Positions 1 to 35,324 of a stretch of 37,291 nt of DNA are shown here, in pieces. Position numbers and translations under genes: made by a program. Under the pieces are notes generated by a model, which did no database searches, was not told where the DNA came from, and saw only the letters and a list, made by a program, of their open reading frames with translations. The stretch comes from a virus. The DNA is taken from the IMG/VR virus record IMGVR_UViG_3300023242_001021, positions 1-37,291 of that record, one strand, 5' to 3'. Each line of letters starts with the position of its first letter. Within the stretch, counting starts at the first letter, position 1.

Positions 1-571
1 CAGGTTTTAAATGGAAATCTTGATGATAAACTATCGAATCAGCAATTGCATCTATATTTAACCTAAGTTTATTATGTTGTTTTATCATTTTTTCATCCGT
101 AATACCACCTTGAGGTGTTTCTACCCCCACAACGGGTACTGAATTGCTAAATTTAGGGCTAATAGATAATAAATGGATAGGGTAGTCTGTAGGTAAGAAA
201 TGACTACCTTCTGTTTCGATAGTAATAAAGATATCATTTTTGTAGGCAAAATGTGTTAATTCGTTTACTAACGCAGGGTGCATTGTAGGTGAACCTCCGG
301 TTAACATCATCTCTTTGATGTGGGGGTTTTTGATATAAGCCTCTTTAATATCATTAAAGTTAAATTGTCCTTTTTCTGGGTGGATTGATGTATAAAAAGA
401 ATCGCACCATCCACCTTCACCAAAATAACATCTGTGGGTACATCCTGTTGTACGTATAACTACTGTTGGGTATCCTGCTCTAGATCCTTCTGATTGTACA
501 GCGGTGTAAACTTCTACAATAGGTAAAACCTTATCATAGTCTGGTAATCGTTTTAATTGTTTTTGTTCCAT
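1..571 (-). CDS. queE: QueE-like 7-carboxy-7-deazaguanine synthase (radical SAM), 3' end outside window
   Basis: Partial: the ATG is at 571 and the frame stays open through the left edge (190 codons seen). Radical-SAM enzyme that converts 6-carboxytetrahydropterin to 7-carboxy-7-deazaguanine, the step after QueD. Seen: substrate-side start 'VYTAVQSEGSRAG' near residues 22-34, then GCTHRC...GWCDS with cysteines at 44, 48 and 56, then LTGGSP (the GG motif that contacts SAM). Cysteine spacing is CX3CX7C instead of the common CX3CX2C, as if five residues (about FGEGG) were inserted before the third cysteine. Lies 33 bp downstream of queD, so probably co-transcribed with trx and queD. Family confidence is high; the metal-cluster variant is a direct observation. 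Confidence 0.9.
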   Translation of the reverse strand, partial: MEQKQLKRLPDYDKVLPIVEVYTAVQSEGSRAGYPTVVIRTTGCTHRCYFGEGGWCDSFYTSIHPEKGQFNFNDIKEAYIKNPHIKEMMLTGGSPTMHPALVNELTHFAYKNDIFITIETEGSHFLPTDYPIHLLSISPKFSNSVPVVGVETPQGGITDEKMIKQHNKLRLNIDAIADSIVYHQDFHLKP

Positions 572-604
572 AATTTTTTTAAGTGGTTTTTGTTTCACTA
601 TTTT

Positions 605-9284: not shown

Positions 9285-9592
9285 ACTATACCATTATTAT
9301 TGATTTCCTCAAGTCTATCTAATATTATAAATTGTTTATCTAATAAATTTTGTATATATTTTTTTGTAATTGTTGGTGATTCGATATCACAATATAAAAT
9401 AAAAAGGAGATTGTGTGTTTTTTTAAATAATTTTTCACCAAATAACCAATACCTTTTTCTAACTTTAATAATGGGTAACGTGTCGTAAAAATAGGTATTA
9501 TAACCCGTAAAGTCCCTACCATGTTCTAACTCACCACCAAATTCTTTAACACTGTATAGGAACTTTCGACCTTTATACTCTAATTGTTTCAT
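9281..9592 (-). CDS. Hypothetical protein, 103 aa
   Basis: Aromatic and basic (KVRKRYWLFGEKLFKKTHN in the middle). No recognisable domain. Its start overlaps the stop of the metallophosphoesterase by 4 bp and its stop overlaps the next start by 4 bp, so it sits inside a coupled operon. No function proposed. Confidence 0.6.
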   Translation of the reverse strand: MKQLEYKGRKFLYSVKEFGGELEHGRDFTGYNTYFYDTLPIIKVRKRYWLFGEKLFKKTHNLLFILYCDIESPTITKKYIQNLLDKQFIILDRLEEINNNGIV

Positions 9593-10269
9593 ATCTCTAA
9601 AATATTTCCATTACTACTCAATCTACCAAATTTTCCATCAGTAACCACGGAACCGTTTGAAAATACTGTATCCAAACCATCAACAGTTCGAGTCCCAGCA
9701 TTGATAATGTCTTTACAGTTATGTATGTGACCGAACAACATGAGTTGAGGGTTGATTAATTTAACAACGTTCCATAAACTTTTACACCCACAAAACTCCA
9801 TTACGTTCATTCTATCAATACCCATATCCAATATTCCTTTTGGTGGGCCATGGGTTACAATAATATCCACATCCTTATCAATTATACCACTCCAAATTCT
9901 ATCTAACTTGTTTCTTGCTTTGTTGAATGACCAACCATTACCAAATGATGGTGTTAATGGTGAACCAAATATTTTGATTCCTTCAATAGTAATATGCTCA
10001 TTCTCTAAGTAGTGAATACCATTCACTTGAATATCAGATATGGATACCAATCCTTTTTCAATTGAACTATCGTGGTTACCTGCTACAAATATTTTATGTT
10101 TGATAGGTAATTCAGAAAACCAATCTATAAAGTTTCTAACTTCAGGTTCATTGTTATAAGGATCTCTAGGGTTAGAACAGTCACCACTAAAGATGACCAT
10201 ATCTATTCCTTTTGGTATTTCTAATAAACCGTGGTATGTGTGAGTATCCCCAATATGCCAAATCTTCAT
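9589..10269 (-). CDS. Metallophosphoesterase (copy A)
   Basis: 226 residues, calcineurin-like fold. All metal-site motifs present: GDTH (Asp8/His10), SGDCSNP (Asp30), GNHD (64-67), THGPPKG (about 139-145), GHIH (about 176-179). Two-metal phosphodiesterase or phosphatase; the DxH...GD...GNHD pattern is shared by cyclic-nucleotide and RNA-end phosphodiesterases, so the substrate is open. Near-duplicate of copy B at 11274-11954, including the leader. Followed by a 4-bp-overlap chain of small genes. Confidence 0.9.
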   Translation of the reverse strand: MKIWHIGDTHTYHGLLEIPKGIDMVIFSGDCSNPRDPYNNEPEVRNFIDWFSELPIKHKIFVAGNHDSSIEKGLVSISDIQVNGIHYLENEHITIEGIKIFGSPLTPSFGNGWSFNKARNKLDRIWSGIIDKDVDIIVTHGPPKGILDMGIDRMNVMEFCGCKSLWNVVKLINPQLMLFGHIHNCKDIINAGTRTVDGLDTVFSNGSVVTDGKFGRLSSNGNILEI

Positions 10270-11273: not shown

Positions 11274-11954
11274 TCAATTTATTTCTAATATGTTCCCATT
11301 ACTACTCAATCTACCAAATTTTCCATCAGTAACCACGGAACCGTTTGAGAAAATTGTATCTAATCCTCTTACTGTTCTAGTACCAGCGTTTATGATATTG
11401 TTGTTATCATGAATATGACCAAATAACATTAACTTGGGTTTTACTATTTGAACTTTATTCATCAGTGATTTATCCCCACAATTTTCAAGGTTTCCTCTTC
11501 TATCATAAGATAAATCTAACATTCCCTTAGGAGGACCGTGCACTACTATAATATCTGAGTCATCCTCTATTATATTATCCCACATTCTATCCAGTTTATG
11601 TCTTTCTTTCATGAAAGACCATTGCCCAAATTGGGGTGTATAAGGAGAACCAAATATCTTTATACCCTCGATAGTAATATGAGTATTTTCTAAATAATAA
11701 ATATCTTTTTTATCGAAATCTTCTTTAGTTACTAAACCTTTTTCTATTGAACTATCATGATTCCCCGCAATAAATACTTTATATTTAATTGGTAATGAAC
11801 TAAACCAATCTATAAATCTTCTTACCTCAGGCTCATTGCTGTAAGGGTCTCGGGGGTTTGAGCAATCACCACTAAAGATGACCATATCAACACCCTTTGG
11901 TATTTCTAATAAGTTGTGGTACGTGTGAGTATCCCCAATATGCCAAATTTTCAT
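11274..11954 (-). CDS. Metallophosphoesterase (copy B)
   Basis: 226 residues, same motifs as copy A: GDTH, SGDCSNP, GNHD, VHGPPKG, GHIH. By eye roughly three quarters of residues match copy A; the middle (about 75-170) differs most. The first 45 codons and the last 20 codons are almost identical in DNA. The stop lies just before the promoter element of the next gene. Tandem duplication with intervening genes is clear; substrate unknown. Confidence 0.9.
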   Translation of the reverse strand: MKIWHIGDTHTYHNLLEIPKGVDMVIFSGDCSNPRDPYSNEPEVRRFIDWFSSLPIKYKVFIAGNHDSSIEKGLVTKEDFDKKDIYYLENTHITIEGIKIFGSPYTPQFGQWSFMKERHKLDRMWDNIIEDDSDIIVVHGPPKGMLDLSYDRRGNLENCGDKSLMNKVQIVKPKLMLFGHIHDNNNIINAGTRTVRGLDTIFSNGSVVTDGKFGRLSSNGNILEIN

Positions 11955-13508: not shown

Positions 13509-14381
13509 CTACTTGTTATGTTGTGCAAGTATTTGTTTTACGTGTGCTTCTGCCACTTCGTAAGATACTGGTCCTGTTTCATCTGCATAACTCGCAGGAT
13601 CAGGACGTCCTAATTTGATAAAGGCTTCGATACGTTCTACTGAACTTGCTGATTTGTAATCTGAGTACCATTCTCCCTTCATAGAATTGTCATTACCATC
13701 AACTGAACCTATAAAAATTGGTTTATATGAAGTAAGTGTTCTTTTATAAACCTCGTCGAAGGTTATTCCAAATTCTTCACATAATATTTCTCCATCTTGT
13801 AATATTGTAAATTTATTACCTTTAATATAGGGTGTAAAATAACCTACTCTATCTGCATCCCAATTTCCTTCTCTAAAGGCTTTATCGTCTGCATCTCTAA
13901 ACTCTTGTCGGCAATCAGGATAAACTTCGAAATCTCCAGCATGAATCCCCATAGCGATATCACAATTTTCCCCTGTTCTATTTGCTATTGATAAGGCAAC
14001 CGCTTGTGTAATAGAAGCAAATATTTTATTACGATTAGGAACAACTGTTTCTTTCATGTTGTCGTTTTCATAATGCCCTTCAGGTACATCATTACCTCCT
14101 TCTACTAATGCTGAATCCAATAAATCTGATAAACCATCTAATTTAATTTGACGGTAAGTGATTTGATGGTATGTAAAAGTATTTGGATGTTCTGATTCCC
14201 CATGTCTGTTTAGATATCTTACTAATGATTTAGCTCTATCTAATTCTACTCTGTGTTTTTGACCATAATCGAAGCTGATGGCGGTACAAGTGTCGTAATC
14301 TTTTAATGCTCTTAATAATAATGTGCTACTGTCCATTCCACCTGAGAGACTAACCACACAATGTTTTTTTGTTTTACTCAT
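13509..14381 (-). CDS. queC: QueC-like 7-cyano-7-deazaguanine (preQ0) synthase
   Basis: 290 residues, longer than the usual 220-240. PP-loop ATPase signature SLSGGMDSST (11-20). Converts 7-carboxy-7-deazaguanine to preQ0 using ATP and ammonia. Other conserved parts: ISFDYGQKHRVEL (35-47), VVPNRNKIFASI, AMGIHAGDF-YPDCR. The C-terminal zinc site of typical QueC (four Cys around WSCY and CGxCxxC) is absent: the matching region reads TLTSYKPIF and DYKSASSVERIEAF without any Cys. Neighbour of the DpdA-like gene, so its product probably feeds DNA modification. Confidence 0.9.
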   Translation of the reverse strand: MSKTKKHCVVSLSGGMDSSTLLLRALKDYDTCTAISFDYGQKHRVELDRAKSLVRYLNRHGESEHPNTFTYHQITYRQIKLDGLSDLLDSALVEGGNDVPEGHYENDNMKETVVPNRNKIFASITQAVALSIANRTGENCDIAMGIHAGDFEVYPDCRQEFRDADDKAFREGNWDADRVGYFTPYIKGNKFTILQDGEILCEEFGITFDEVYKRTLTSYKPIFIGSVDGNDNSMKGEWYSDYKSASSVERIEAFIKLGRPDPASYADETGPVSYEVAEAHVKQILAQHNK

Positions 14382-18845: not shown

Positions 18846-19607
18846 TTAAGAATCTAATTTAGAAAAACCGTTTGGAACAACTCCTTCACAAATTAAGGTT
18901 GCTACTATTGGAGATACTACTGAACCTACAAATATACCTACTCCTGCTGGTGTTGATAATGCTGCTGTTGCATATATTGGATTTGCTTTACCTACTACAT
19001 TAGTAAGTACCTTTGTTAGTAACTCTTTATTACATTTTCCTTTTACTCCAGGTATTAAAAAGATACCATCAGCTAAAAGTTTACCAACTACGGTAGATAC
19101 TGCCATCATTGCTGCTTTCTCTCCCATTGTTGCCATTGTTGCTAGCATAGTAGCACTAATAGTTGTAGAAGTTACAGTACCGGGATCTGTTGGTGCTGGT
19201 TTAGGAGTGAAGTACATTACACACCCTGTTGTAAGTGCCATATTTAATCCAATGTAACAAGCGTTTTCATCCAACCAATCTACTGCTACGTTAGCTGTAT
19301 CTTCTACTACTTCCAATCCATCTTTAGCAAAATCAATTGCTTGAGCACTACCCGCTTTCCAAGTATCATCTTCTACATCTAATCCTTGTTTTGCAGCTTC
19401 TTCAGTATTCTTAGCAACCACATTAGTTGTGTGTACTACTGCTTTAGTAGAATCCTTATAGATGTTTGTAGTTGTTTTAGCAACATCATTCACTGTATCT
19501 ACAATTACATCAATTGGATTAGGTATTTTTGGTACACTTGGTAATTTTGGTACACTTGGTATTTTTGGTACACTTGGTAGTTTAGGTTTTTTAAATGGAT
19601 TCTTCAT
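18846..19607 (-). CDS. Proline-repeat protein with C-terminal membrane-active region
   Basis: 253 residues. N-terminus is a repeat of KPxLPSVPKI-type units (residues about 5-31), coded by four near-identical 24-30 bp DNA repeats at 19515-19593. Middle is helical and charged with repeated VV..T patterns (KTTTNIYKDSTKAVVHTTNV). The C-terminal 130 residues are Ala/Gly/Val-rich with several possible membrane helices (TISATMLATMATMGEKAAMM, GVGIFVGSVVSPIVATLI). No family recognised. Lies between endolysin and small membrane proteins; a lysis or virion-membrane role is a guess. Confidence 0.65.
   Translation of the reverse strand: MKNPFKKPKLPSVPKIPSVPKLPSVPKIPNPIDVIVDTVNDVAKTTTNIYKDSTKAVVHTTNVVAKNTEEAAKQGLDVEDDTWKAGSAQAIDFAKDGLEVVEDTANVAVDWLDENACYIGLNMALTTGCVMYFTPKPAPTDPGTVTSTTISATMLATMATMGEKAAMMAVSTVVGKLLADGIFLIPGVKGKCNKELLTKVLTNVVGKANPIYATAALSTPAGVGIFVGSVVSPIVATLICEGVVPNGFSKLDS
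19515..19593 (-). repeat. Tandem repeat coding for PSVPK units
   Basis: Repeats of TGGTACACTTGG-type units (plus-strand reading) separated by ATTTT or AATTT. Length changes here would alter the N-terminal proline repeat in steps of about five residues. Confidence 0.7.
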
Positions 19608-19620
19608 AATCTATATAACT

Positions 19621-19821
19621 TTATTTATCTTTATTATTATTCATACCGAAATAAGTACCCACTATGGCTACTAATCCGGTAATAGTTACTTGTAAAAGGT
19701 GTATTATATTTTCGTTTATGGGTCTACTATCTTCCATGGCTATATGGAAATCTCCTACTACTATAATTAATAGTAATAACATTATGCCCGTAACTAATAT
19801 CAATACAACTCTTTCTTTCAT
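19621..19821 (-). CDS. Small membrane protein, 66 aa
   Basis: Two membrane segments: about 4-22 (VVLILVTGIMLLLLIIVVG) and 40-60 (LLQVTITGLVAIVGTYFGM), short charged ends. Typical size and topology of a class II holin or small phage membrane protein in a lysis cassette. Ten bp separate it from the next gene upstream. Confidence 0.7.
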   Translation of the reverse strand: MKERVVLILVTGIMLLLLIIVVGDFHIAMEDSRPINENIIHLLQVTITGLVAIVGTYFGMNNNKDK

Positions 19822-19830
19822 TTTAGTAAT

Positions 19831-20085
19831 TTATTCTTTCTTACCAAATATTTTACCTGCTTCCGCTATCCCAAAAGAACCTAGAGTTATGATTACAAAT
19901 GAATTGTAAATAAGTTCGTTTATTACTAAGTCTTTTCCAAAATAACCCGTGATAATATCTACAAAGGCAAATATTACCATTACAGTGAAAGATAAGAAAC
20001 CAACCACTGATTTCTCGTTAATATCGTTTTCGTCTTTAAAAATGTCTTTAAAAGCCATCCATTTATTTTTTATAAAGTTTAACAT
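19831..20085 (-). CDS. Small membrane protein, 84 aa
   Basis: N-terminal charged stretch MLNFIKNKWMAFKDIFKDEN, then two membrane helices (about 28-47 and 55-76) and a basic end FGKKE. Resembles small T4-like phage membrane proteins of unknown function and could act as a second holin or antiholin. First gene after the terminator at 20160, so it heads the lysis transcript. Confidence 0.7.
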   Translation of the reverse strand: MLNFIKNKWMAFKDIFKDENDINEKSVVGFLSFTVMVIFAFVDIITGYFGKDLVINELIYNSFVIITLGSFGIAEAGKIFGKKE

Positions 20086-20159
20086 GGTATAACTGTTTTA
20101 AATTAACAACTCGATTTTATTATAAATATAACAAATAATTTAAATATTAAATTTCCCTC

Positions 20160-20202
20160 AAAAAAAAATACCCCTAATTACTTAGAGGTATTTAATTTTT
20201 TT
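20160..20202. terminator. Strong, apparently bidirectional terminator between nrdA C-half and lysis genes
   Basis: 12-bp stem AAATACCTCTAA/TTAGGGGTATTT (one G-T), loop GTAA, flanked by A8 on one side and T7 on the other, so it has a U-tract in both directions. Only minus-strand genes are present around it. Confidence 0.85.
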
Positions 20203-20240
20203 GTTTAAATTTTTTCACTGAAAGTGTTTAAAAACACATC

Positions 20241-21254
20241 TTATCCTTCACAACTCACACAAAGAGCTTGTCGGGAGCCTAAGTCACCTTTGATAACTGA
20301 ATCTGTTCTTAAATAGTAAAGTGTTTTAATGCCTAATTTCCAACTCTCTAAGTGGACTTGATTAATCCATTTAGGTGAATCATTTACATCAAAACTTAAA
20401 TTTAGAGATTGAGTTTGATCAATATATCTTTGTCTAATCGCTGCTTGACGTACTAATTCTAATTGATTAATTTCAGGAAAGGTTAAGAATAATTCTTTTT
20501 CATCAGGAGATAGGACATTATCAGGTAATCCTACTACAGACCCATTATCTCTTAACATTTGGTCCCAATATTCTTCTTGGTTTTCACCTTTACTTTCCAA
20601 TAATACTTCTAATACTTTATTTTTTCTAATAAAAGTACCTTTAGCACCATTAAAGGTATAGATATTAGCAGGAAGTGGTTCAATACCTGCAGAGATACCA
20701 CCGGTTATTACAGAATTAGATACTGTAGGGGCAATTGCCAACAGATGTGTATTTCTCATGCCCGTACCCTTACACCATAATGGTTCTCCATATTCTACAG
20801 CCAGGTCCCGGGATGCTCTTTCCGCTTTGATTCTAATATCGCTAAAAATATTATGAGTGTGGGCGGTGGATGCTATTGAATTGAAGGGTAATCCTTTTTG
20901 TTGCAAAAACGTATGCCACCCCATTACACCCAAACCTAATGCTCTACCTTTTCGGGCATGGGCATTCGTCCTAGTTAATGAATCTATACCATTAGATTTT
21001 TCTATAAATTCTTGCATTACACCATCCAAAAACCAGGTAGACATTTCCACAGTATCTGTGTCTTTCCATTCTTCGTATTTTGCTAAATTTAAAGATGATA
21101 AACAACAAATAAAAGAATGTTCTTCATCTGTAAATAAGGTAATTTCAGAACAGTTATGAACTACAGCACCATTAGCATAGAAATTTTTATTGTCCTGTAC
21201 CGTTATATCATATACCGGTTTTTTATTTGATAATTTCGAAATTTTTAATCCCAT
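20241..21254 (-). CDS. nrdA: NrdA C-terminal half preceded by split intein C-fragment (IntC-NrdA-C)
   Basis: 337 residues. Residues 1-34 are the intein C-fragment: block F-like KPVYDITVQDNKNFYANG and block G AVVHN, ending His33-Asn34. The next residue is Cys (+1), followed by SEITLF..., the NrdA active-site strand whose Cys carries the thiyl radical in class I reductases. C-extein features: KTLYYLRTDS (radical-transfer Tyr pair) and the C-terminal redox pair ALCVSCEG. Makes functional NrdA only after trans-splicing with the product of 22352-23470. Confidence 0.93.
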   Translation of the reverse strand: MGLKISKLSNKKPVYDITVQDNKNFYANGAVVHNCSEITLFTDEEHSFICCLSSLNLAKYEEWKDTDTVEMSTWFLDGVMQEFIEKSNGIDSLTRTNAHARKGRALGLGVMGWHTFLQQKGLPFNSIASTAHTHNIFSDIRIKAERASRDLAVEYGEPLWCKGTGMRNTHLLAIAPTVSNSVITGGISAGIEPLPANIYTFNGAKGTFIRKNKVLEVLLESKGENQEEYWDQMLRDNGSVVGLPDNVLSPDEKELFLTFPEINQLELVRQAAIRQRYIDQTQSLNLSFDVNDSPKWINQVHLESWKLGIKTLYYLRTDSVIKGDLGSRQALCVSCEG

Positions 21255-21265
21255 TTTTTTAATTT

Positions 21266-21910
21266 TTATATTTTATATTTCCATTTATACCCATATATTG
21301 TGGGTCTTTTTCCTTTGGCACATTCCCCAATAGCGGCTCCTGTTTTTTTATTTAAAGAATGAGCCGCCTTAATTATAGATTCCCATTCTTTTATAAAATT
21401 TAATTCTAAATCATATTGTAATATAGGTTTATTATTTTTACCTAAATTATTTAATCTTGCTTTTTCTCTAGACTCTGGGGATTGGGTTTTCCCTTTCATT
21501 GGGGATATTCTACCTTTATGACCCTTAGATTTACCCTTATGGGCAATTCTTAAATTTTCACAATGCCATTTTGGTTTTTTTCTACCATATGGGTAACCAA
21601 CTCCCTTTCTGCTTTTATTGTAAAATAATTCGCTTTCAAAAGCATTATACTGTCCTATGTAATATTCCTCCATTTCTTTCATTACTTTAGAATTAAGGAC
21701 ATTCTCTAATATTTCTCTTTTAAAATTATCTACACCATATTTTTTTAAAGCTAACTTTAAATAAGTTCCACTCCCTAAGTATCCATCATTTAAATCTTTA
21801 CAAGTATGGGAACCTATATATTTTTTCTCATTTACTAAATTAGTTGTTATATAAACTATGAATTTAGGAGTTGGCTTTTCTTTCGTGATACTTTCTTTTA
21901 ACATTTTCAT
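21266..21910 (-). CDS. GIY-YIG homing endonuclease with NUMOD-type DNA-binding repeats
   Basis: 214 residues. GIY-YIG core: FIVYITTN (17-24) and KKYIGSH (29-35), with Arg/Glu-bearing helices after. Then short repeats like GKSKGHKG and GKTQSPESREKARLNNLGK (NUMOD3 type, about 128-155), and a C-terminal SLNKKTGAAIGECAKGKRPT-YGYKW block (NUMOD1/helix-turn-helix type). Lies between the two nrdA halves, 11 bp upstream of the IntC gene. Free-standing homing enzymes of this kind cut alleles lacking the insertion and spread it; here it probably mobilises or once mobilised the split nrdA. Confidence 0.9.
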   Translation of the reverse strand: MKMLKESITKEKPTPKFIVYITTNLVNEKKYIGSHTCKDLNDGYLGSGTYLKLALKKYGVDNFKREILENVLNSKVMKEMEEYYIGQYNAFESELFYNKSRKGVGYPYGRKKPKWHCENLRIAHKGKSKGHKGRISPMKGKTQSPESREKARLNNLGKNNKPILQYDLELNFIKEWESIIKAAHSLNKKTGAAIGECAKGKRPTIYGYKWKYKI

Positions 21911-22007
21911 CTACTTTTGTTTTATTTTTCCAATAATAAGTTTTACTATATTCAAGTTGTTTTTGAACACGTTCATCCTCGGTTTGATATTTTTTTATAC
22001 GTCCCAT
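21864..22007 (-). CDS. Possible small ORF overlapping the endonuclease start, 47 aa
   Basis: ATG at 22007, TAA at 21864. Starts MGRIKKYQTEDERVQKQLEY and continues KTYYWKNKTKVDENVKRKYH; strongly basic, similar in style to small ORFs found with phage homing nucleases (to my recollection). Overlaps the GIY-YIG start by 47 bp, so either it or the N-terminal extension of the endonuclease is not used. Low confidence. Confidence 0.35.
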   Translation of the reverse strand: MGRIKKYQTEDERVQKQLEYSKTYYWKNKTKVDENVKRKYHERKANS

Positions 22008-22041
22008 TATCGTTTATAAATATATAGATCTAAGAAAAAGT

Positions 22042-22371
22042 CTAAGAAAATTTTAATTGTTTTTTTAAGTTTTTTAATTCATTTTTGTATAACTTTTTAA
22101 AAGTTGGAGTGGTCGATATAAACTCATTTTTATCCGTTAGAATATTATACTCTATTTCCCCAACAATCTGATCATCAGATACATCTAGAAACCAAACTTT
22201 CTGCCATTCCTTTTGTATAAAAATCAATAAATCTTTTTTATTATCAAACATACAAAAATAATCCCCTACCTCCAAATTTCTAGTAGATTGATTTTTAGAC
22301 AACCCCAAAAACATACCTTGAGAAGTTAATATTTTTTCTGTATGATGGTTTTTAGTAAATAAGTTCATCAT
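22042..22371 (-). CDS. Hypothetical protein in the nrdA insertion, 109 aa
   Basis: MMNLFTKNHHTEKILTSQGM start, beta-rich (NLEVGDYFCMFDNKKDLLIF) with a helical Lys-rich end (KKLYKNELKNLKKQLKF). Overlaps the stop of the NrdA N-half gene by 20 bp. No family recognised. Not part of the intein blocks, which are complete in the flanking genes; probably cargo of the insertion. Confidence 0.5.
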   Translation of the reverse strand: MMNLFTKNHHTEKILTSQGMFLGLSKNQSTRNLEVGDYFCMFDNKKDLLIFIQKEWQKVWFLDVSDDQIVGEIEYNILTDKNEFISTTPTFKKLYKNELKNLKKQLKFS

Positions 22372-23470
22372 CTTCTATTAAATTTTGAGCCTCAATCCAA
22401 CCTCTATTTTTAGTTAATATTTTATGTTCTGGAGTGCATTGTATTTTAAATCCCGTTACTTCATCCTCAATCTCTAATAATTCAGCTTCAGGGTTGGTTA
22501 CTCCATAATTGGTAATAAGTTTATATTCCTTTTCCAAAGTCTCAAGATTATAACTTAAAACATAAACTTCAGAATGGGTTTGAAGTAAAAACTCAAGGTC
22601 TTGAATTTCTATTTCTTGTTTTTTATCTCCTATTTTAATGTTAATTTTAGTATCCCCAGTAACACATATATTGGTCATTGTTACTTCTAGATTATTTAGC
22701 ATGTAAGCCATTGGATTTTGTTTATTTACATTATCTTTGTACATAATGTAAGGTTCACCTGTTTCCATTCTTGATTTTAAGACTTTAGCCCAAGTATTTA
22801 AAGCTTCAGAATCCCGTGTTTCTAATCTACGCATAAAATGATCATCTACAACAACACATTGGTGTAAATTTAAACATTGTCTGTTTGGGTCTCCTTTTGG
22901 TCTTCTAATTTCTAAAAATTCATTAATATCCTCGTGATTGATGTCTAAATTAACTGAAGCTGCTCCTCTTCTAACATTGCCCTGATTTGTAGCTATAATA
23001 GATGAATCGAATATTTTAGCCCAAGGTACAACCCCTTCAGATTTCCCATTTCCCGAGATTTCAGTACCGCGTGGTCTGATGCGAGATAAGCCAATACCTA
23101 CCCCACCACCGGAGGCGGTTAATTTCATTAGTTCTGCGTTTGTTAAACCTATTCCACGTATAGAATCGGGTGTATCTATACCAAAACATGAAATTGGTAA
23201 CCCACGGCTTGTTCCCATATTTGATAAAACGGGGGATGCCAGGCCTAACCAACCATTCCACATTATTTTAAAGAATTTGGATGCTAATTCTGGTTTTTTT
23301 AATCTAAAAGCGGAGGCATTTGCTACTCTTTTATATGCTGTTCTTACTGTTTCTCCAGGTAGTAAGTAACCCTTGCTGATTGTTGCTAATGAGATTTCAT
23401 CCATGTATTCAGGGTAATCTTTACCTGCAATCCAATTACTATAATCTGCTATTAGTGAATTATTGTCCAT
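22352..23470 (-). CDS. nrdA: NrdA N-terminal half followed by split intein N-fragment (NrdA-N-IntN)
   Basis: 372 residues. Residues 1-268: ribonucleotide reductase large subunit without an ATP-cone, with SPVLSNMGTSRGLPISCFG (substrate-site Cys), TASGGGVGIGLSRIRPRG, NQGNVRRGAASVNLDINHED. N-extein ends MTNI. Residues 269-372: intein N-fragment starting CVTGDTKI (Cys1, block A) with block B CTPEHKILTKNRGW. Cys1 codon is at 22664-22666. Ends with a stop directly after the block B region, so splicing must occur in trans. Together the exteins give a 571-residue NrdA. Confidence 0.93.
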   Translation of the reverse strand: MDNNSLIADYSNWIAGKDYPEYMDEISLATISKGYLLPGETVRTAYKRVANASAFRLKKPELASKFFKIMWNGWLGLASPVLSNMGTSRGLPISCFGIDTPDSIRGIGLTNAELMKLTASGGGVGIGLSRIRPRGTEISGNGKSEGVVPWAKIFDSSIIATNQGNVRRGAASVNLDINHEDINEFLEIRRPKGDPNRQCLNLHQCVVVDDHFMRRLETRDSEALNTWAKVLKSRMETGEPYIMYKDNVNKQNPMAYMLNNLEVTMTNICVTGDTKINIKIGDKKQEIEIQDLEFLLQTHSEVYVLSYNLETLEKEYKLITNYGVTNPEAELLEIEDEVTGFKIQCTPEHKILTKNRGWIEAQNLIEDDELIY

Positions 23471-23487
23471 TTTTTTGTTTTAGTTTA

Positions 23488-24477
23488 TTAAAATAAGTCG
23501 TTTACATCCCAATTCTGTACTCCTTTTGAATAATTAGTTACCCTTGAGGCAAAGAAATCGGTATGTTGTTTTCCAGCAGATAAACTATCAAACCATTTCA
23601 TTCTTTTAATAGAAGCTGCATCTATACCATTTACAATAGAATCATATCCTAAATCTTGCATTTTAGTATTAACTCTATATTTGATAAAAGATACTAAATC
23701 GTATTTTGAGCATCCCTCTAAATCTCCCATTGCATATACTTTGTCAATGAAGCCTAATTCAAGTTTTAAAGATAATTTAGCTGCTTCTTCAATTTCAATT
23801 CTTAATTCAGGGGTATTTAGGTCAGGGTTTTCTACCATTAATTGTCTAAATAACCAACATCCTGCTTCTGAGTGTAATGATTCATCTCTGATGCTCCATT
23901 CTACAATTTGTCCTACTCCTTTTAATTTATTTTGTAATTTAAAAGATAATAAAATAGCAAAGGATGAAAATAAATTAACACCCTCGGTAAATGCAGAGAA
24001 GATTGCTAAGGATTTTGCTCGGGCAGACCAATCTGGTTCCCCATTATGTGAATCTCTCACATCCATTAAAGCTTGAATTTTTGCCATTGTAGCTTCATCT
24101 TCTAAAAATTCAGAAAAATTATCTAAACCTAATTCTTCATTTAATAGAGAATAGGCTTCAGCATGTATAGTTTCAAATGCCCCGAATGTAACCGCCATTT
24201 TAATAATCTCGGGTTTTCTGAACCAAGAGGTAACTAAATTGGTCCAATAATCATTTACTACAGTTTCAGTTTGTGCAAATCCTTTTAGGATTGAACCTAC
24301 AATATTTTTTTCATTTACTGTTAAATTTTGTTTCCAATCATTTACATCTGACATCATGGGAACTTCTGTGTGGAGCCAATGTGCTTGGTGTTGTTTTAAC
24401 CAATAATCGTGGGCTTCAGGGTATTCGAATGGCTTGTAAACTATTCTTTCTTCTTTAATGTCTCTTTTTTTACTCAT
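23488..24477 (-). CDS. nrdB: Ribonucleotide reductase class I small subunit (NrdB)
   Basis: 329 residues. Di-iron ligands in order: TETVVNDYW, AFETIHAEAYS (Glu and His three apart, with Tyr seven after the Glu, the position of the radical Tyr), FTEGVNLFSSF, and IRDESLHSEAG (Glu/His). So a tyrosyl-radical class Ia/b type is likely. Partner of the split NrdA 17 bp downstream. Supplies reducing radical for dNTP synthesis during replication. Confidence 0.95.
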   Translation of the reverse strand: MSKKRDIKEERIVYKPFEYPEAHDYWLKQHQAHWLHTEVPMMSDVNDWKQNLTVNEKNIVGSILKGFAQTETVVNDYWTNLVTSWFRKPEIIKMAVTFGAFETIHAEAYSLLNEELGLDNFSEFLEDEATMAKIQALMDVRDSHNGEPDWSARAKSLAIFSAFTEGVNLFSSFAILLSFKLQNKLKGVGQIVEWSIRDESLHSEAGCWLFRQLMVENPDLNTPELRIEIEEAAKLSLKLELGFIDKVYAMGDLEGCSKYDLVSFIKYRVNTKMQDLGYDSIVNGIDAASIKRMKWFDSLSAGKQHTDFFASRVTNYSKGVQNWDVNDLF

Positions 24478-24491
24478 GATTTAATAATTAA

Positions 24492-25868
24492 TTATTCGTT
24501 ACCTAATTCAAAAAACCTTTCTCTTAATAATTGTTTATCTGTAGCATTTACACCCGTATCAAACTTATTTGATTGGTGGGCAGGGGTTAAATGCTCGTCC
24601 CCATTACTCGTATCTTGGTAATCGTATACTTCAAAATGTCCAGTTGAAGTGTTAGCATTTACACCAAATGTAAGACCGTCAATACCATATCTATTTTTCA
24701 TTATATGGAATCTTCCGGTATTGTTAACTTTATCTTCTTTTTTACGTGAAAGAGACATACAGAAATCAGTAATCATAATCTTATCATAAGACCCTGCTGC
24801 TTTATCCCCTTCAATAATATCATCTTTTGCACCTGCACGATTAACTTGAGAAACTGACCAAATAGGTATATTTAACTGTTTTGCTAATCCCTTAGTGCTT
24901 GTATAAATATCATCAATTTCATCTTTACGCTCACGGTTGGTTTTTCTTGATGCAAGAAGATCTACATAATCTATAATAATCATATCAGGTTTTATCCCTA
25001 AGCTAATACACTTAGATATATGAGATTCAATGGTTGATACTGTTGCTCTACCTGTAGGGTATTCCTTTACAATCAAACTTCCAGGTAATTGAGGTAGAAT
25101 TTCTTCTACTTTATCACGGTGGGAGTCTATTTTATCAACTGGTATTTTGGTGAAAAAAGCATCGTATCTTTTAGCTACATATTCTTCACCTAATTCTAGA
25201 GTATAATGTAAAACATTATACCCCAATTTAACAGCATACCCTCCTAATGCTACTAATGACCAGGATTTACCACCCCCAGGATTACCAAATATAAGACCGA
25301 AATCACCATTACCTAAACCTCCCTGTAGGATAGTATTTACGCGTTCCCAAGGAGTAGGAACAGTAGTTCTTGAATTTTCTCTATAACGAGATTCAATGTC
25401 TTTAACATATTCATGCCCCAAATTTTTATCTTGCCCCGATTTTAAAGCACTATCAATCAAAAAACGAATCCCATCATAATCCCCGGCTTGTAACATATCA
25501 ACCGAAGACATTAATGCCTTTTTCAATTGTTGGTTTTTACAAAAATTAGTAAATTCTTCTTGAACATATTCTAAATCATCATCAGAAGAAATATAGGCTT
25601 GTTTAAGTTGCTCTCTAATTGAAATTTGTAAAACCTCGTTGTCTACTTTTTGTAATTCTACTTTTAAAATATCTAATGAGGGTGTTGTGTGGTATTTTTG
25701 GTAATATTTTAAAATTTCTCTAATAATCCACTTCATTGCACTATTCTCAAAATCATCTTCCGAAATAATATCGTGGATGTTAATTAGAAATTCTTTATGA
25801 CTTAATAAAGATGATAACACTTTTATTTGGAAGTCATTTCCATACTGGTTTACTGAGGAAAGGGTCAT
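24492..25868 (-). CDS. Replicative DNA helicase (T4 gp41 / DnaB-like)
   Basis: 458 residues. N-terminal DnaB-like helical domain (about 1-150), then RecA-type ATPase: Walker A GNPGGGKS (195-202), Walker B-like DMIIIDYVDLLAS, and the IPIWSVSQVNRAGA sensor strand, GAKD loop and DKIMITDFCMSLSRKKED. Hexameric 5'-3' helicase that loads at the fork with primase. In T4-like genomes it lies in the same cluster as UvsX and gp32, as here. No intein insertion visible. Confidence 0.92.
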   Translation of the reverse strand: MTLSSVNQYGNDFQIKVLSSLLSHKEFLINIHDIISEDDFENSAMKWIIREILKYYQKYHTTPSLDILKVELQKVDNEVLQISIREQLKQAYISSDDDLEYVQEEFTNFCKNQQLKKALMSSVDMLQAGDYDGIRFLIDSALKSGQDKNLGHEYVKDIESRYRENSRTTVPTPWERVNTILQGGLGNGDFGLIFGNPGGGKSWSLVALGGYAVKLGYNVLHYTLELGEEYVAKRYDAFFTKIPVDKIDSHRDKVEEILPQLPGSLIVKEYPTGRATVSTIESHISKCISLGIKPDMIIIDYVDLLASRKTNRERKDEIDDIYTSTKGLAKQLNIPIWSVSQVNRAGAKDDIIEGDKAAGSYDKIMITDFCMSLSRKKEDKVNNTGRFHIMKNRYGIDGLTFGVNANTSTGHFEVYDYQDTSNGDEHLTPAHQSNKFDTGVNATDKQLLRERFFELGNE

Positions 25869-30006: not shown

Positions 30007-31299
30007 CTAGGGGGAGACCAGAGAATGGTAATTTTCTCCTTCCTTATAATTTAATTCAAACCCATAATTCGTATATATGTTCTTAATTATATTTAGGACA
30101 ACACCCATTTCACTATCCCTTATGTCTAAAAGTATTGAATCATATACATATAAAATTAGTTTTGAATCAAAACCCCTTAACTTACTAAGCACCTCCCATA
30201 AAATTGTTACTTGCATAGAAGATTCAAGACATTGTAATAAATAATTTAAAATTTTCCCAGGGTTCATATTAACATGATTGATTTTAGATAAAATATAACC
30301 AGATATGGGACATACTATATATCCTTGCTTATTATATTCATCCCATAAATTTTTTTTATATAATGATATTTTTTGGAAAAATTCTAAATCTTTATATTCT
30401 TCTAAAGTACTACTATTTATTTGTTTTAGAGTTAATATTTTTGCCTCTTTCCTCCCTAAGCCGTAAATTTCCCCTAAGTATTCATATATACCCCCAGAGG
30501 GTATTTTATAATCTATAAGTTTAGATAAAATAACCACATGCATACTTTTAACATCGAGTTCCACAAACCTGTTATTACGTGGTATAAAACTTTTTCTGCA
30601 TCCATTTTCTTTATTAAGTGCGGCATAATTTACGTTTTTAAATTTATTTGAGGGTCTTGTTGTTGTTGTTTTTAAGTTATATTGAGTGTAGACGTATTCC
30701 TCACCTGATAGGGGGTGGAAATATTCTTCGAAGGTTGGTACATGTACTTTAATTCCACTTCGCTCGATTGCGTTGAATACCATTGATACTTTATTATTAA
30801 AGAATTCATTGTATTTTGTTTTACATTGGTTTATAGTTGTTTTTAAATCTCTGAATATCGTTTCACATAATTCATAATGTTTAACAACCGGGATAATTTG
30901 GTTTATATTTGGGTTATCACCATGTTGTCTATAATATAATTCATGTGTTTGTGTTGTAGGTCGTATATACGTAGTGGGGGGTGGTGTGGTGTTCCAAAGT
31001 GTTTTTAGAGGAAAATAATGTAATATTTCCTTTTTATCTCTACAATATAGAACTTCAAAGTTTTTTAGTATGTCAAATATGTCTGTTTCATACGTGTTTA
31101 ATTCGTTTAAAGTTTCACTATGGTTGACCCCTAACATAAACCCCTTGCTTGATTCATTTGGTCTAATATACACTAAAGATATGTGGTTTTGTGTTGGGTG
31201 TATATTATCATTGTATGGTATTACTTCTATGAATGCCTCCTTATAACCACTATTGTGGAAACACCTTAATTGCTCTTCTGTTTCTATTAACCAATACAT
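30007..31299 (-). CDS. Divergent short family-A DNA polymerase-like protein
   Basis: 430 residues, about half the length of Pol I. Palm/finger signatures in order: TTTTRPSNKF (211-220, like TxTGRLS), motif A-like VELDVKSMHVVIL (247-258, Asp249), motif B-like GLGRKEAKILTL (280-291, Arg283, Lys287), the NYLLQCLESSMQV helix (352-364, like NxxIQGSAAD) and motif C-like LYVYDSILLD (383-392, Asp387). Together these give a family-A polymerase core without a recognisable 3'-5' exonuclease. The N-terminal 170 residues are unassigned. Could be the replicative enzyme of this phage or a repair polymerase; T4 uses a family-B enzyme instead. Confidence 0.7.
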   Translation of the reverse strand: MYWLIETEEQLRCFHNSGYKEAFIEVIPYNDNIHPTQNHISLVYIRPNESSKGFMLGVNHSETLNELNTYETDIFDILKNFEVLYCRDKKEILHYFPLKTLWNTTPPPTTYIRPTTQTHELYYRQHGDNPNINQIIPVVKHYELCETIFRDLKTTINQCKTKYNEFFNNKVSMVFNAIERSGIKVHVPTFEEYFHPLSGEEYVYTQYNLKTTTTRPSNKFKNVNYAALNKENGCRKSFIPRNNRFVELDVKSMHVVILSKLIDYKIPSGGIYEYLGEIYGLGRKEAKILTLKQINSSTLEEYKDLEFFQKISLYKKNLWDEYNKQGYIVCPISGYILSKINHVNMNPGKILNYLLQCLESSMQVTILWEVLSKLRGFDSKLILYVYDSILLDIRDSEMGVVLNIIKNIYTNYGFELNYKEGENYHSLVSP

Positions 31300-32033: not shown

Positions 32034-35000
32034 TTAAAAAAGGTTGTTGAAAATTGATGTTGCTGCTAAAATATTAGATTGAGTATCACTTACACTACTG
32101 ATTTGGTACTCCCAATGCCAAGCTTCCCAACTTTCATCTCTTGTTTTTGGATTTAGACGTTTAAAACCAAATTTTATTGCGTTTTTTGCTAACCATTTGT
32201 ATTGGGGGTCTTGTGGTTTTATTGCGGAAAAAGAGAGAGTTGCAAAATCTACAGCTACACCAAAACCATGATTTGATGATCCTGGGGATGCTGCTGCACC
32301 TTTTCCAGATATTGGTTGGCATTTTGCACCTCTTGCTGGTAGATTTGAGCAATTTTGTTTAAAGACTCTTTCTTGATCATCATACGTCCTATAAGCACTG
32401 TTGATTTTAAATTGAATGTTATCTTTTTTAGCTTGTTCTAATAACTTATCTAAGGCTAAAGATGCTTCGGTGAATAAACGGATTCTCTTTTCATCACTTT
32501 GAATATATCCTTTATATTCAAATTCATTATTAATAGTACGTAATTTATTATTTGGGATTTCTCCGTTTGTATATGTAGTTCCTAATATTTGTTTAGTTGT
32601 TCCTCCTCTATTCCCACTAAAATCTGTTACTATGACTTCAGGAAGATCTCCACTAACATTTGTAACACTTGATATGCCATTAGAAGTATTATCTTTTAAA
32701 TTAGACGTAGAAATTGTTCCTAATACGGTATCCCAATTATTGCCAGATATTCTATGGTTTATTTTGGTAACTAAAAAATCAAGAGCTTCCCCATAGTTAG
32801 GAGGTAAAAATCTAGTATCTATATTTAATTTATTATATATCTTTACACCCGAAAGTCCTTCCAAAGTAAGATCAAAAGATACAGGGATAAACCCTATGTT
32901 GCCTGAGGCTTCTTGGGTTTCTTTAAATTGGTTTTGGGATAAAGTATCTATATAAGATTTAAAGGTGGATTTACCCCTATTTATTAAATCATCATCAATA
33001 AATAATTTATTATATTTTTTTGATATGTTAAATTCTTTTTTTGCAGTTCCATTACTAAAAGTATAAGGGAAATTTGCACCGAATATATCATGTAAACAAC
33101 CTGCATATGTATTTTGTGTTATTCTTTCTATTTCATTTTCCTCATATGTTTTAGCATCTAATTCTATTTTTTTCTTAGTAGTATCTTGTACAAATTTTCT
33201 AGCAACATCTTCTTTAGTACCTAATTGATCTTTATAACCAATCCACTTACGACCACTTGTAGTAGGGTAACTGGATGAATAAGGTAAAATCCATTTAGCA
33301 TTACTTGAGTCACTCTCAAGGGTTGCTAAGGCATAATTATATGCATCCTTTTTATATTGAATTAAATCTGTACCGGTAGATGTTTTATCTTTAGAAGAGA
33401 GGAATGGTATGGGGTCTTTATATTGGAGTTGAAATCTATCTTTTAAACCTATATTCCATTTAGAAAAAGCAGTAGCATCAGAATTTTTAGTTGATTTACC
33501 ATCGGCTGTAGCCCCAATAGAAATCATACTAGCCATAGAGTTGTCTATTTTTGTTTGAAATTTTATATCTTTTAAAAAGTTGGATTTTCCACCATTATAA
33601 CCAAAAACTTCTATTTTTGGATTTGTCTTTGGTGATGGTGGGGATTTTTGGATAAATTTACTTAACCCCGGGATTGGGTTTTGGTCTATAATAACTAAAG
33701 TTTTATCATCTTTAATTACAGGTTCTAAATTGTTAAATCCTCCTAAAGATTGATTTAAACCATTACATATGGATTCAACTAAAGTATAAAGACTTAAGTT
33801 TCCATTTTCATCTACATTATCTTTTAAAATTTTTAGAAGAAAATTAACATTTAAATACACATTCATTAATTTGCCGGCAGTAAAACCATCTTTTTCTACC
33901 ATAAACTTTTGGGGTAAACCTACATTGATTTTACTAAAGGGTGATTTATCTTTTAAATTTTGATAAGAATCTAAAAAGTTTTTCCCCCACTTCATTGTAA
34001 ATAAACACACTTTGGGGTCAAATGGAAGTTGATTAAAATATGTTTTTATATAATTATCTTCAGGTGATGTTTCTATGGATATAATACTTTCATTTTCTGA
34101 AGCTTTAGGGATTACTAGGTCTGTTAGATTATCTAAAAAGAGTCCAAGTCTTATAAAATAATTGAATTCTCCTTTAGGTAAAGGTTTACCATATACTGCT
34201 TCAGTTACACCTGGGATATCTTTATATGAAATTAGAGGGGAATCTTTAGTATTTTTATCATGATTAATTATTTTTTTATTAAGATATCGACTTACTACGT
34301 CATTACCCATAGAAAGATAATTTAAAGATTCCTCATCAAAACCTTTAGCTTTTAATTTAGTTTGATTTAAGGTTAATTCCTCTTTACCTGCTATTGGGGC
34401 ACTAGTGTTAACCTTTAAAGATTCTACTACATCTCCAACTGTAATTAAGTTTATTGTTATATCATAACTACCATCGGGATTAAAATTCCATGTAAAGTTA
34501 TTTACTTTACCGAAAAACCCATCATAATTACCATGATATATATCGCTTCTATATCTTTCTATAGCTTGAATCATTTTAGAAGGGGTATAAGTTTCGTTTT
34601 TAAACCATAAATCTTCTATAATGGTATTTCCTGTCTCTTCTATAGTAAAGGTACCATCTTGTTTTATTTCCTTAATATATTTATCCCATCCCCATTCTAA
34701 CATCATAGTGTAACCTAATCTTAAGTAAAGCATTTCTATAATAGAAAATTGGTATCTATTGAATGCTTTTAAAGTTACAGTTGCTTTACGAATTGAGCCT
34801 CTATTTACACAATCTATAGATACATCTATTATACCTGGGGTGGGTTGTAGGCCCATTTCTGTACCTCCAAAACCGTAAGAAGAATCTACATCTAACCAAG
34901 ATTGTTGGGAGGTTTGTATACCCCTTCTAAAAGTATAATCAGAAAAATCTTGAGTTCCTTTTTTAAAGTTAAGATTAGATAAAGTATTAAATAATACAAA

Positions 35001-35324
35001 GTTTTTAGCTAAACCCTGACCATTATATTTAATATAACCAATTTTTGAAGACGGATCACCTAAATCTTTAGATATAGAAGTTAATCTAGATATTCCCGTA
35101 CTTTTTTCAGGTAGATTTTTCCCATCAATTTTATCAACTAAAGCTACACCTGAAGCCATTTTGACCCAAGCATTTCTATTATTTAAATAAGTTAATAGTG
35201 TTGTGTTGTTTGTTCTATTTATAGAAGATCCTACACTCCCCGCACCATTTAATTTTTGTCTTATATCTATTTGATCAAAAACGTATTGTTTAAATTCTTC
35301 ACCTAGGATATTCCCTTGTTCCAT
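32034..35324 (-). CDS. Large baseplate/tail protein with C-terminal M15-type peptidase
   Basis: 1096 residues. The N-terminal ~850 residues are beta-rich and contain TMMLEWGWDKYI (about 199-210), a signature I associate with baseplate hub proteins of T4-like phages. The C-terminal 150 residues form a zinc D-Ala-D-Ala carboxypeptidase/endopeptidase (M15, VanY type): INSAYRTYDDQERVF, GSSNHGFGVAVDFATL (His and Asp ligands) and EAWHWEYQ (His ligand). Would cleave the stem peptide of the cell wall during DNA injection. Two bp separate it from the gp53-like gene. Confidence 0.85.
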   Translation of the reverse strand: MEQGNILGEEFKQYVFDQIDIRQKLNGAGSVGSSINRTNNTTLLTYLNNRNAWVKMASGVALVDKIDGKNLPEKSTGISRLTSISKDLGDPSSKIGYIKYNGQGLAKNFVLFNTLSNLNFKKGTQDFSDYTFRRGIQTSQQSWLDVDSSYGFGGTEMGLQPTPGIIDVSIDCVNRGSIRKATVTLKAFNRYQFSIIEMLYLRLGYTMMLEWGWDKYIKEIKQDGTFTIEETGNTIIEDLWFKNETYTPSKMIQAIERYRSDIYHGNYDGFFGKVNNFTWNFNPDGSYDITINLITVGDVVESLKVNTSAPIAGKEELTLNQTKLKAKGFDEESLNYLSMGNDVVSRYLNKKIINHDKNTKDSPLISYKDIPGVTEAVYGKPLPKGEFNYFIRLGLFLDNLTDLVIPKASENESIISIETSPEDNYIKTYFNQLPFDPKVCLFTMKWGKNFLDSYQNLKDKSPFSKINVGLPQKFMVEKDGFTAGKLMNVYLNVNFLLKILKDNVDENGNLSLYTLVESICNGLNQSLGGFNNLEPVIKDDKTLVIIDQNPIPGLSKFIQKSPPSPKTNPKIEVFGYNGGKSNFLKDIKFQTKIDNSMASMISIGATADGKSTKNSDATAFSKWNIGLKDRFQLQYKDPIPFLSSKDKTSTGTDLIQYKKDAYNYALATLESDSSNAKWILPYSSSYPTTSGRKWIGYKDQLGTKEDVARKFVQDTTKKKIELDAKTYEENEIERITQNTYAGCLHDIFGANFPYTFSNGTAKKEFNISKKYNKLFIDDDLINRGKSTFKSYIDTLSQNQFKETQEASGNIGFIPVSFDLTLEGLSGVKIYNKLNIDTRFLPPNYGEALDFLVTKINHRISGNNWDTVLGTISTSNLKDNTSNGISSVTNVSGDLPEVIVTDFSGNRGGTTKQILGTTYTNGEIPNNKLRTINNEFEYKGYIQSDEKRIRLFTEASLALDKLLEQAKKDNIQFKINSAYRTYDDQERVFKQNCSNLPARGAKCQPISGKGAAASPGSSNHGFGVAVDFATLSFSAIKPQDPQYKWLAKNAIKFGFKRLNPKTRDESWEAWHWEYQISSVSDTQSNILAATSIFNNLF

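What the first reader, a model, noticed from the sequence alone, without database searches (positions are those of the whole stretch)
20241..23470. Fractured nrdA: split intein in trans with a GIY-YIG homing endonuclease between the halves
The NrdA N-half ends in a 104-residue intein N-fragment (Cys1, CVTGDTKI, TPEH block). A separate gene begins with a 34-residue intein C-fragment (YDITVQDNKNFYANG, AVVHN) followed by +1 Cys. All splicing residues look intact, and the +1 Cys is the NrdA radical-site cysteine, so the reductase depends on splicing. The 1.1-kb gap carries a GIY-YIG/NUMOD enzyme plus small ORFs. Similar fractured genes with split inteins are known (Dassa et al. 2009, metagenomic NrdA, NrdJ and gp41 cases), but I recall an EDHD-type nuclease there; a GIY-YIG partner looks less familiar.
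Basis: partly seen in the sequence, partly recalled or inferred. Interest (0 to 1): 0.85.

Follow-up and report, generated by a model that had tools for sequence, protein, structure and literature searches.

The report
Phage nrdA broken by split intein
A virus of bacteria makes the key enzyme for DNA building blocks as two separate halves that a split protein-splicing element most likely joins, while a mobile DNA-cutting gene and a conserved protein of unknown function sit in the gap; the arrangement belongs to a known kind, but the extra conserved parts look new.

Summary
nrdA is broken exactly before the radical-site cysteine (E. coli C439) into NrdA-N + 104-aa intein N-fragment and 34-aa intein C-fragment + NrdA-C. 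In 77 of the 80 best relatives nrdA is uninterrupted there; the module recurs in phages whose exteins are mostly 54-68% identical. Splicing residues are invariant and the intein halves are under strong purifying selection, so trans-splicing is very likely, though not shown. One contig (L010) shares ~95% of module DNA with phages whose C-extein DNA is ~62% identical: lateral transfer ending at the intein edge, as homing predicts. A GIY-YIG partner is not new (AceL NrdHF, PMC7891396).

The parts
23488..24477 (-). nrdB, upstream neighbour (context)
   Evidence: Pfam Ribonuc_red_sm E 1.1e-62
22667..23470 (-). NrdA N-extein, 268 aa
   Evidence: 95% identical to the contiguous nrdA of L005 and L006
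22355..22666 (-). split-intein N-fragment, 104 aa (Cys1, TPEH); stop codon at 22352-22354
   Evidence: TIGR01445 above cut-off; profile hits solved NrdJ-1 intein 8ubs, E 2.2e-15; C1, T78, H81 invariant in 11 aligned rows
22042..22371 (-). ORF109, orphan gene, overlaps the end of the intein N-fragment gene by 20 nt
   Evidence: found on 18 contigs, all at this intein; open in 12 of 12 complete variants; dN/dS median 0.26; nothing above cut-off in Pfam or NCBIfam and only stray E >= 0.014 in PHROGs; no relative in cultured phages or by the pattern-based scan of genome contigs
22008..22048 (-). conserved non-coding header element (two TTCTTAGA units, then TATATATTTATAAACG in the window); overlaps the end of ORF109 by 7 nt
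   Evidence: one copy in each of 7 of 8 phage records searched, plus a 3-mismatch second hit in the eighth
21864..22007 (-). ORF47, 47-aa basic peptide gene at the head of the endonuclease cassette
   Evidence: 19 distinct sequences: pN/pS 0.127 in its own frame, 1.06 and 1.42 in the other two
21266..21910 (-). GIY-YIG/NUMOD putative homing endonuclease, 214 aa; start overlaps ORF47
   Evidence: PHROG 314 E 3.1e-34; TIGR01453 E 1.7e-13, below its cut-off; dN/dS median 0.146
21153..21254 (-). split-intein C-fragment, 34 aa, ends in HN
   Evidence: TIGR01443 above cut-off; D16, H33, N34 invariant in 9 aligned rows
20241..21152 (-). NrdA C-extein, starts with the +1 Cys (codon 21150-21152) = E. 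coli C439

Best explanation
This is a fractured nrdA. The two NrdA halves are translated separately, each carrying half of a class-1-type split mini-intein (104 + 34 aa). The halves associate and splice in trans, restoring the NrdA active site at the radical-site cysteine (inferred). The gap is filled by a mobile cassette: a control-like element, the 47-aa ORF47 and a GIY-YIG/NUMOD endonuclease that most likely cuts intein-less nrdA alleles, so that the whole intein region is copied into them by repair (homing). ORF109, started from inside the intein-N gene, travels with the intein. It is most likely a separate small protein under selection, translated by coupling to NrdA-N, with a role that does not need the endonuclease. 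Shown by sequence: anatomy, exact empty site, purifying selection, invariant splicing residues, lateral transfer of the module. Inferred: splicing, cleavage, promoter role of the element, any function of ORF109.
For: Exact empty site in 77 of the 80 relatives kept. C1, T78, H81 invariant in 11 intein-N rows; D16, H33, N34 invariant in 9 intein-C rows; 20 of 20 loci printed read HN-Cys. dN/dS medians 0.083 and 0.084 for the intein halves, 0.12 for the exteins, over pairs with unsaturated synonymous sites. Intein-N profile matches the solved NrdJ-1 intein. One nrdA only in the 138-kb twin contig. L010 against L096: ORF47+GIY 94.6%, intein C 94.1%, C-extein 61.5% nt identity, dropping at the intein edge. 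Among 5 relatives, without the window, fourfold sites match more in GIY (0.75-0.93) and ORF109 (0.68-0.95, only 17-25 sites a pair) than in exteins (0.43-0.64). No Rfam intron in the region.
Against: No experiment and no known host. For the window itself, fourfold sites of GIY (0.39-0.45) are no closer to the relatives than the exteins are (0.26-0.46), so its own acquisition is not shown to be recent. L010 could be a chimeric contig: L010, L096 and L097 come from metagenomes with neighbouring numbers, though 94.6% rather than 100% identity argues against. Single GIY/NUMOD models are below cut-off. No dip in identity to the empty relative L005 beside the junction, so no co-conversion tract was seen. 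ORF109 models are low confidence (mean pLDDT 64.7 and 60.5).
Confidence: 0.87

Rival explanations
1. Genes-in-pieces without splicing: the two NrdA halves assemble without being joined, as in Aeromonas phage Aeh1, and the intein pieces are leftovers.
For: Aeh1 NrdA split by mobE works in pieces (passages read, PMC2988022). A broken oxidoreductase gene with the same header and no intein exists in other phage contigs, so such assembly may occur there.
Against: Intein splicing residues are invariant and dN/dS is 0.08, which leftovers would not show. Unspliced halves would carry 104 and 34 extra residues right at the radical-site cysteine.
Confidence: 0.06
2. Pseudogene or assembly artefact.
For: An interrupted essential gene invites it; the GIY gene is indeed decayed in some relatives (L101, L102, L105).
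Against: Two further contigs identical in the module, and 12 complete variants on 18 contigs; in the window all parts are open frames and all seven parts tested have dN/dS medians of 0.26 or less.
Confidence: 0.02
3. ORF109 is merely the freed, decaying remnant of an older endonuclease domain of the intein, kept only by its overlap.
For: It sits where an intein's endonuclease domain would sit; its dN/dS (0.26) is the highest of the parts tested; fold models show five strands plus one helix with no informative match.
Against: Open in 12 of 12 complete variants while the GIY gene is broken or missing in 4 of 12; in L101 and L102 a second GIY gene lies upstream and ORF109 has another in-frame start inside its 3' end.
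Confidence: 0.2

Closest known systems
Fractured genes with split inteins of Dassa et al. 2009 (NAR 37:2560; nrdA, nrdJ, gp41 and others)
   Same: Conserved enzyme gene broken by a split intein with a free-standing endonuclease gene between the halves; control elements brought in with the endonuclease (abstract, recalled; the paper is not held). PMC3653736 tells of 7 nrdA and 2 nrdJ cases there (passage read).
   Different: Endonuclease here is GIY-YIG/NUMOD-type and not the Vsr-like type of half of those loci (recalled). Whether ORF109 or ORF47 occurs there could not be checked.
AceL NrdHF split intein (PMC7891396, one section read)
   Same: Phage-like contig, RNR gene in fractured organisation, GIY-YIG gene in the gap; trans-splicing assayed there with model proteins.
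   Different: Class 3 intein in the beta-subunit gene nrdHF, with Ala at position 1; here a Cys1 intein in nrdA. No ORF109 mentioned in the section read.
NrdJ-1 split intein (PDB 8ubs, 9omb)
   Same: Best match to the N half among solved structures (E 2.2e-15); split intein of an RNR gene (recalled).
   Different: Profile-level similarity only; other RNR class (recalled); C half matches weakly (E 0.061).
Aeromonas phage Aeh1 nrdA interrupted by mobE (passages in PMC2988022 and PMC3653736)
   Same: nrdA split into two genes by a homing endonuclease gene.
   Different: No self-splicing element; the split enzyme is functional; mobE is an HNH enzyme.

Membership tests
Fractured gene with split intein | Conserved enzyme gene in two separate ORFs on one strand | tested here: met
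   empty contiguous alleles in 77 of the 80 relatives kept
Fractured gene with split intein | Intein N-fragment on the first ORF and C-fragment on the second, together a full splicing domain | tested here: met
   NCBIfam N- and C-terminal intein models above cut-off; Pfam profile positions 4-93 and 125-155 of 155
Fractured gene with split intein | Free-standing endonuclease gene between the halves | tested here: met
   GIY-YIG ORF 21266-21910, PHROG 314 E 3.1e-34; single Pfam and NCBIfam models below cut-off
Functional trans-splicing intein | Nucleophile Cys1, block B T..H, C-terminal HN and +1 Cys | tested here: met
Functional trans-splicing intein | Ligated extein product | not testable with these tools
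   Needs co-expression and mass spectrometry
Homing endonuclease | Cleaves the empty allele near the insertion site | not testable with these tools
   Indirect only: exact empty site and transfer with a boundary at the intein edge
Vsr-like (EDxHD) endonuclease loci | Vsr-like nuclease in the gap | tested here: not met
   Gap enzyme is GIY-YIG type; no Vsr-like family among its hits
Group I intron | Intron RNA in the gap | tested here: inconclusive
   No intron family up to E 1 in window 19500-25000; a library miss is not proof

The most novel reading that the evidence does not exclude
The gap of this split intein is a homing-driven cargo island. The intein hides the break, the GIY-YIG enzyme drives spread, ORF109 is a dedicated third component of the intein that outlives the endonuclease, and a shared header (element + ORF47) lets cargo and endonucleases be swapped by recombination between different broken phage genes, nrdA with an intein and an oxidoreductase gene without one.
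Probability: 0.35. Interest if true: 0.68.

Novelty: new variant of a known kind. Interest (0 to 1): 0.52.

Why it matters
It shows a split intein with its empty alleles, a laterally moved copy, copies with decayed endonuclease and a distant endonuclease-free split form side by side, which makes the proposed path from gene breaking to permanent split inteins testable. The conserved ORF109 suggests that such loci may carry a third, undescribed component. The header shared among cassettes in different genes hints at how free-standing endonucleases swap loci and pick up passenger genes. The intein is also a natural split intein with Cys1 and Cys+1 that could be tried as a tool.

Tried and rejected
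Dassa et al. 2009 could not be read (not held), so the claim that ORF109 looks undescribed rests on its absence from the libraries and scans below and on six paper searches (listings seen, passages of a few papers read, none seen to describe it); it is not a proof.

The scans for relatives start from short peptide patterns, so far relatives can be missed: viral contigs 140 matches, 18 relatives; genome contigs 177 matches, no relative.

Considered: group I intron (no Rfam hit); the header as the phage's general late promoter (rejected as stated: one copy in each of 7 of 8 phage records of 19-160 kb and two, one of them with 3 mismatches, in the eighth; the records may be fragments, and the window and L086's contig are the same virus or nearly so); the header as an operator resembling the homing site, as for I-TevI (passage in PMC2988022; no likeness to the nrdA site seen by eye, not tested); the longer GIY reading frame over ORF47 (rejected: pN/pS about 1 there). 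Cargo proteins as ADP-ribosyltransferases: of the five cargo proteins scanned, only one gave a weak hit of that kind (Tox-ART-HYD1 E 0.037, below cut-off), so left open. A capsid-targeting reading of the MKKSELKQxIKEE start is recalled, not tested.
Full report
What is there. On the minus strand the order is nrdB (24477-23488), NrdA-N + 104-aa intein N-fragment (23470-22352), ORF109 (22371-22042), a conserved non-coding element (22048-22008), ORF47 (22007-21864), a 214-aa GIY-YIG/NUMOD-type ORF (21910-21266), and a 34-aa intein C-fragment + NrdA-C (21254-20241). The record is a 37,291-base virus contig with T4-like replication genes: DnaB-type helicase, RecA-like protein, gp32-like protein and a 5'-3' exonuclease. 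A 138,667-base contig (L086) is identical to it over the module and exteins and 99% identical in nrdB, and holds only this one nrdA.

The break. The C-extein's first residue aligns with E. coli NrdA C439, the radical-site cysteine (its role is established knowledge). Of the best 80 nrdA relatives kept out of 594, 77 read straight through exN|exC with no base between; L010 carries the module, L038 starts three codons before the junction and is empty there, and L084 does not reach it. The two closest relatives (L005, L006, perhaps one virus), 95% identical in both exteins, are empty. L195, whose exteins are of the other, more distant group (65% and 58%), is empty too. The nearest nrdA found in cultured phages (Flavobacterium phage immuto, 64% over 95% of the query) is annotated as one gene.

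The intein. The N-fragment profile hits the solved NrdJ-1 split intein (E 2.2e-15). Cys1, T78 and H81 are invariant in 11 intein-N rows, and D16, H33 and N34 in 9 intein-C rows. In one search, 20 of 20 loci continue HN-Cys. Median dN/dS is 0.083 and 0.084 for the intein halves, against 0.12 for the exteins; pairs with saturated synonymous sites drop out of these medians (7 of 36 for the N-extein, 12 of 78 for the C-extein, 2 of 55 for intein N, 1 of 66 for ORF109). I infer working trans-splicing; nothing here shows it. Other contigs give other states: L165 carries a 52%-identical split intein before the same CSEI motif with a spacer of some 100-125 nt and no endonuclease gene, and L166 a more distant continuous mini-intein in a reductase-like gene. 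Direction of change among these states was not tested.

Movement. The module recurs in phages whose exteins are mostly 54-68% identical in protein to the window's (73% over a partial stretch in L107; L010 80%), while intein-N is 70-81% (85% over a partial stretch in L095), intein-C 76-85% and window-type GIY 73-77% where complete. L010 is the sharpest case: its C-extein is 80% identical in protein to the window's, but its ORF47+GIY DNA is 94.6% and its intein-C DNA 94.1% identical to L096, while the C-exteins of L010 and L096 are 61.5% identical; the drop falls at the intein/extein border. A chimeric contig is not excluded, as these contigs come from metagenomes with neighbouring numbers, but the module is not 100% identical. 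Among five relatives (L090, L094, L095, L098, L099), fourfold-degenerate sites match at 0.75-0.93 in GIY and 0.68-0.95 in ORF109 (few sites), against 0.43-0.64 in exteins. Between the window and these relatives GIY (0.39-0.45) does not stand above the exteins (0.26-0.46), so those sites say nothing about when the window acquired its copy. No dip in identity to the empty relative L005 was seen beside the junction.

The endonuclease is modular and expendable. Grouping contigs with the same proteins gives 12 complete variants of the module's left part (window, L087, L090, L094, L095, L098, L099, L101, L102, L104, L105, L143; L149 is cut by its contig end and L010, L096, L097, L100 and L103 lack the left part). 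Six carry the window-type GIY gene complete (window, L090, L094, L095, L098, L099), two (L087, L104) keep a like start and the same C-terminal tail with a different GIY core, three (L101, L102, L105) are broken or cut down, and one (L143) has no match. In L101 and L102 a second GIY gene lies between the intein N-fragment and ORF109. A GIY-YIG gene in a fractured RNR gene is already in print (AceL NrdHF, PMC7891396, section read), so this part is not novel.

ORF109. A scan with an ORF109 alignment finds 18 contigs in the viral collection; all 18 have it directly after this intein N-fragment or after the second GIY gene that follows it, and in all 12 complete variants the frame is open. Its ATG lies inside the codons of the last residues of the intein N-fragment, except in L101 and L102, where it starts inside the end of the inserted GIY gene. 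Median dN/dS is 0.26. Nothing above cut-off was found in Pfam or NCBIfam, nothing convincing in PHROGs, and no relative in cultured phages or, by a pattern-based scan, in the genome contigs. Two predicted models agree on five strands and a C-terminal helix, with the first 35 or so residues at pLDDT under 50, and are too weak for a fold call. I take it to be a real small protein coupled to NrdA-N translation; what it does is open. My best guess is a passenger or regulator useful on its own, because it outlasts the endonuclease.

The header. An element of about 39 nt (two TTCTTAGA units, then TATAATATTTATAATC in most copies) with a sharp left border stands before ORF47. Codon patterns say that ORF47 is translated: over 19 distinct sequences pN/pS is 0.127 in its frame and 1.06 and 1.42 in the others. 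A scan for its 23-nt core found 30 stretches: 13 in this nrdA module, 13 with ORF47 but elsewhere, and 4 with the element alone; some are near copies of each other. Of six genes after ORF47 elsewhere that were scanned, one (L190) hits GIY-YIG and NUMOD3, four (L188, L196, L197, L204) hit NUMOD domains only, and L192 has no Pfam hit. In six contigs (L188, L199, L200, L204, L207, L211) the cassette lies between two halves of an oxidoreductase gene, as read by eye; the L204 halves were aligned and match residues 1-169 and 183-436 of the intact 437-aa protein in L210, with no intein. Seven of eight phage records searched hold one copy of the element and the eighth a second, 3-mismatch hit, so it is not a general phage promoter; a control element carried by the endonuclease cassette, as in the Dassa abstract (recalled), fits best.

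Cargo. Between ORF109 and the header (or, where the header is gone, the GIY remnant or the intein C-fragment) the gap ranges from none (window -5 nt, L090 10, L104 14) to 966 nt in the 12 variants. It holds different ORFs, several beginning MKKSELKQxIKEE. The L095 cargo shares 699 nt at 97.1% with L211 and 391 nt at 87.5% with L199 and L200, where the header cassette sits in the broken oxidoreductase gene. So cargo and header appear to be exchanged between an intein-borne and an intein-free site. This is the most novel reading and rests on few loci.

Verdict.

Noticed in passing
window 2-598, 605-1069, 13509-14381 (-): Radical-SAM (weak Pfam hit, below cut-off; QueE-like by my reading), PTPS (QueD-type) and QueC genes: a 7-deazaguanine precursor set, suggesting modified phage DNA.
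   Followed up: partly
L204 (by eye also L188, L199, L200, L207, L211): Oxidoreductase gene broken by a header + NUMOD-type cassette without an intein; intact form in L210.
   Followed up: partly
L165:3249-6541: Split intein before the CSEI motif of a distant NrdA, split at a like position, spacer of some 100-125 nt, no endonuclease gene.
   Followed up: partly
L101:2691-3311 and L102:3857-4477: A second GIY gene between intein N-fragment and ORF109; ORF109 has a start inside its 3' end.
   Followed up: partly
L098:884-1858, L101:3628-4455, L143:5317-5988: Cargo proteins with YHxT-like motifs that look ADP-ribosyltransferase-like by eye; Pfam gives one weak hit, for L143 only.
   Followed up: partly
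window 9589-10269 and 11274-11954 (-): Two similar metallophosphoesterase-like genes; the first hits Pfam Metallophos, the second resembles it by eye.
   Followed up: no
window 30007-31299 (-): 430-aa protein with weak DNA polymerase A similarity in its C-terminal part only.
   Followed up: no
window 32034-35324 (-): 1,096-aa protein with a VanY D-Ala-D-Ala carboxypeptidase domain near its C-terminal end.
   Followed up: no
L099:6581-7297: A further GIY-type gene just downstream of nrdA-C in one relative.
   Followed up: no
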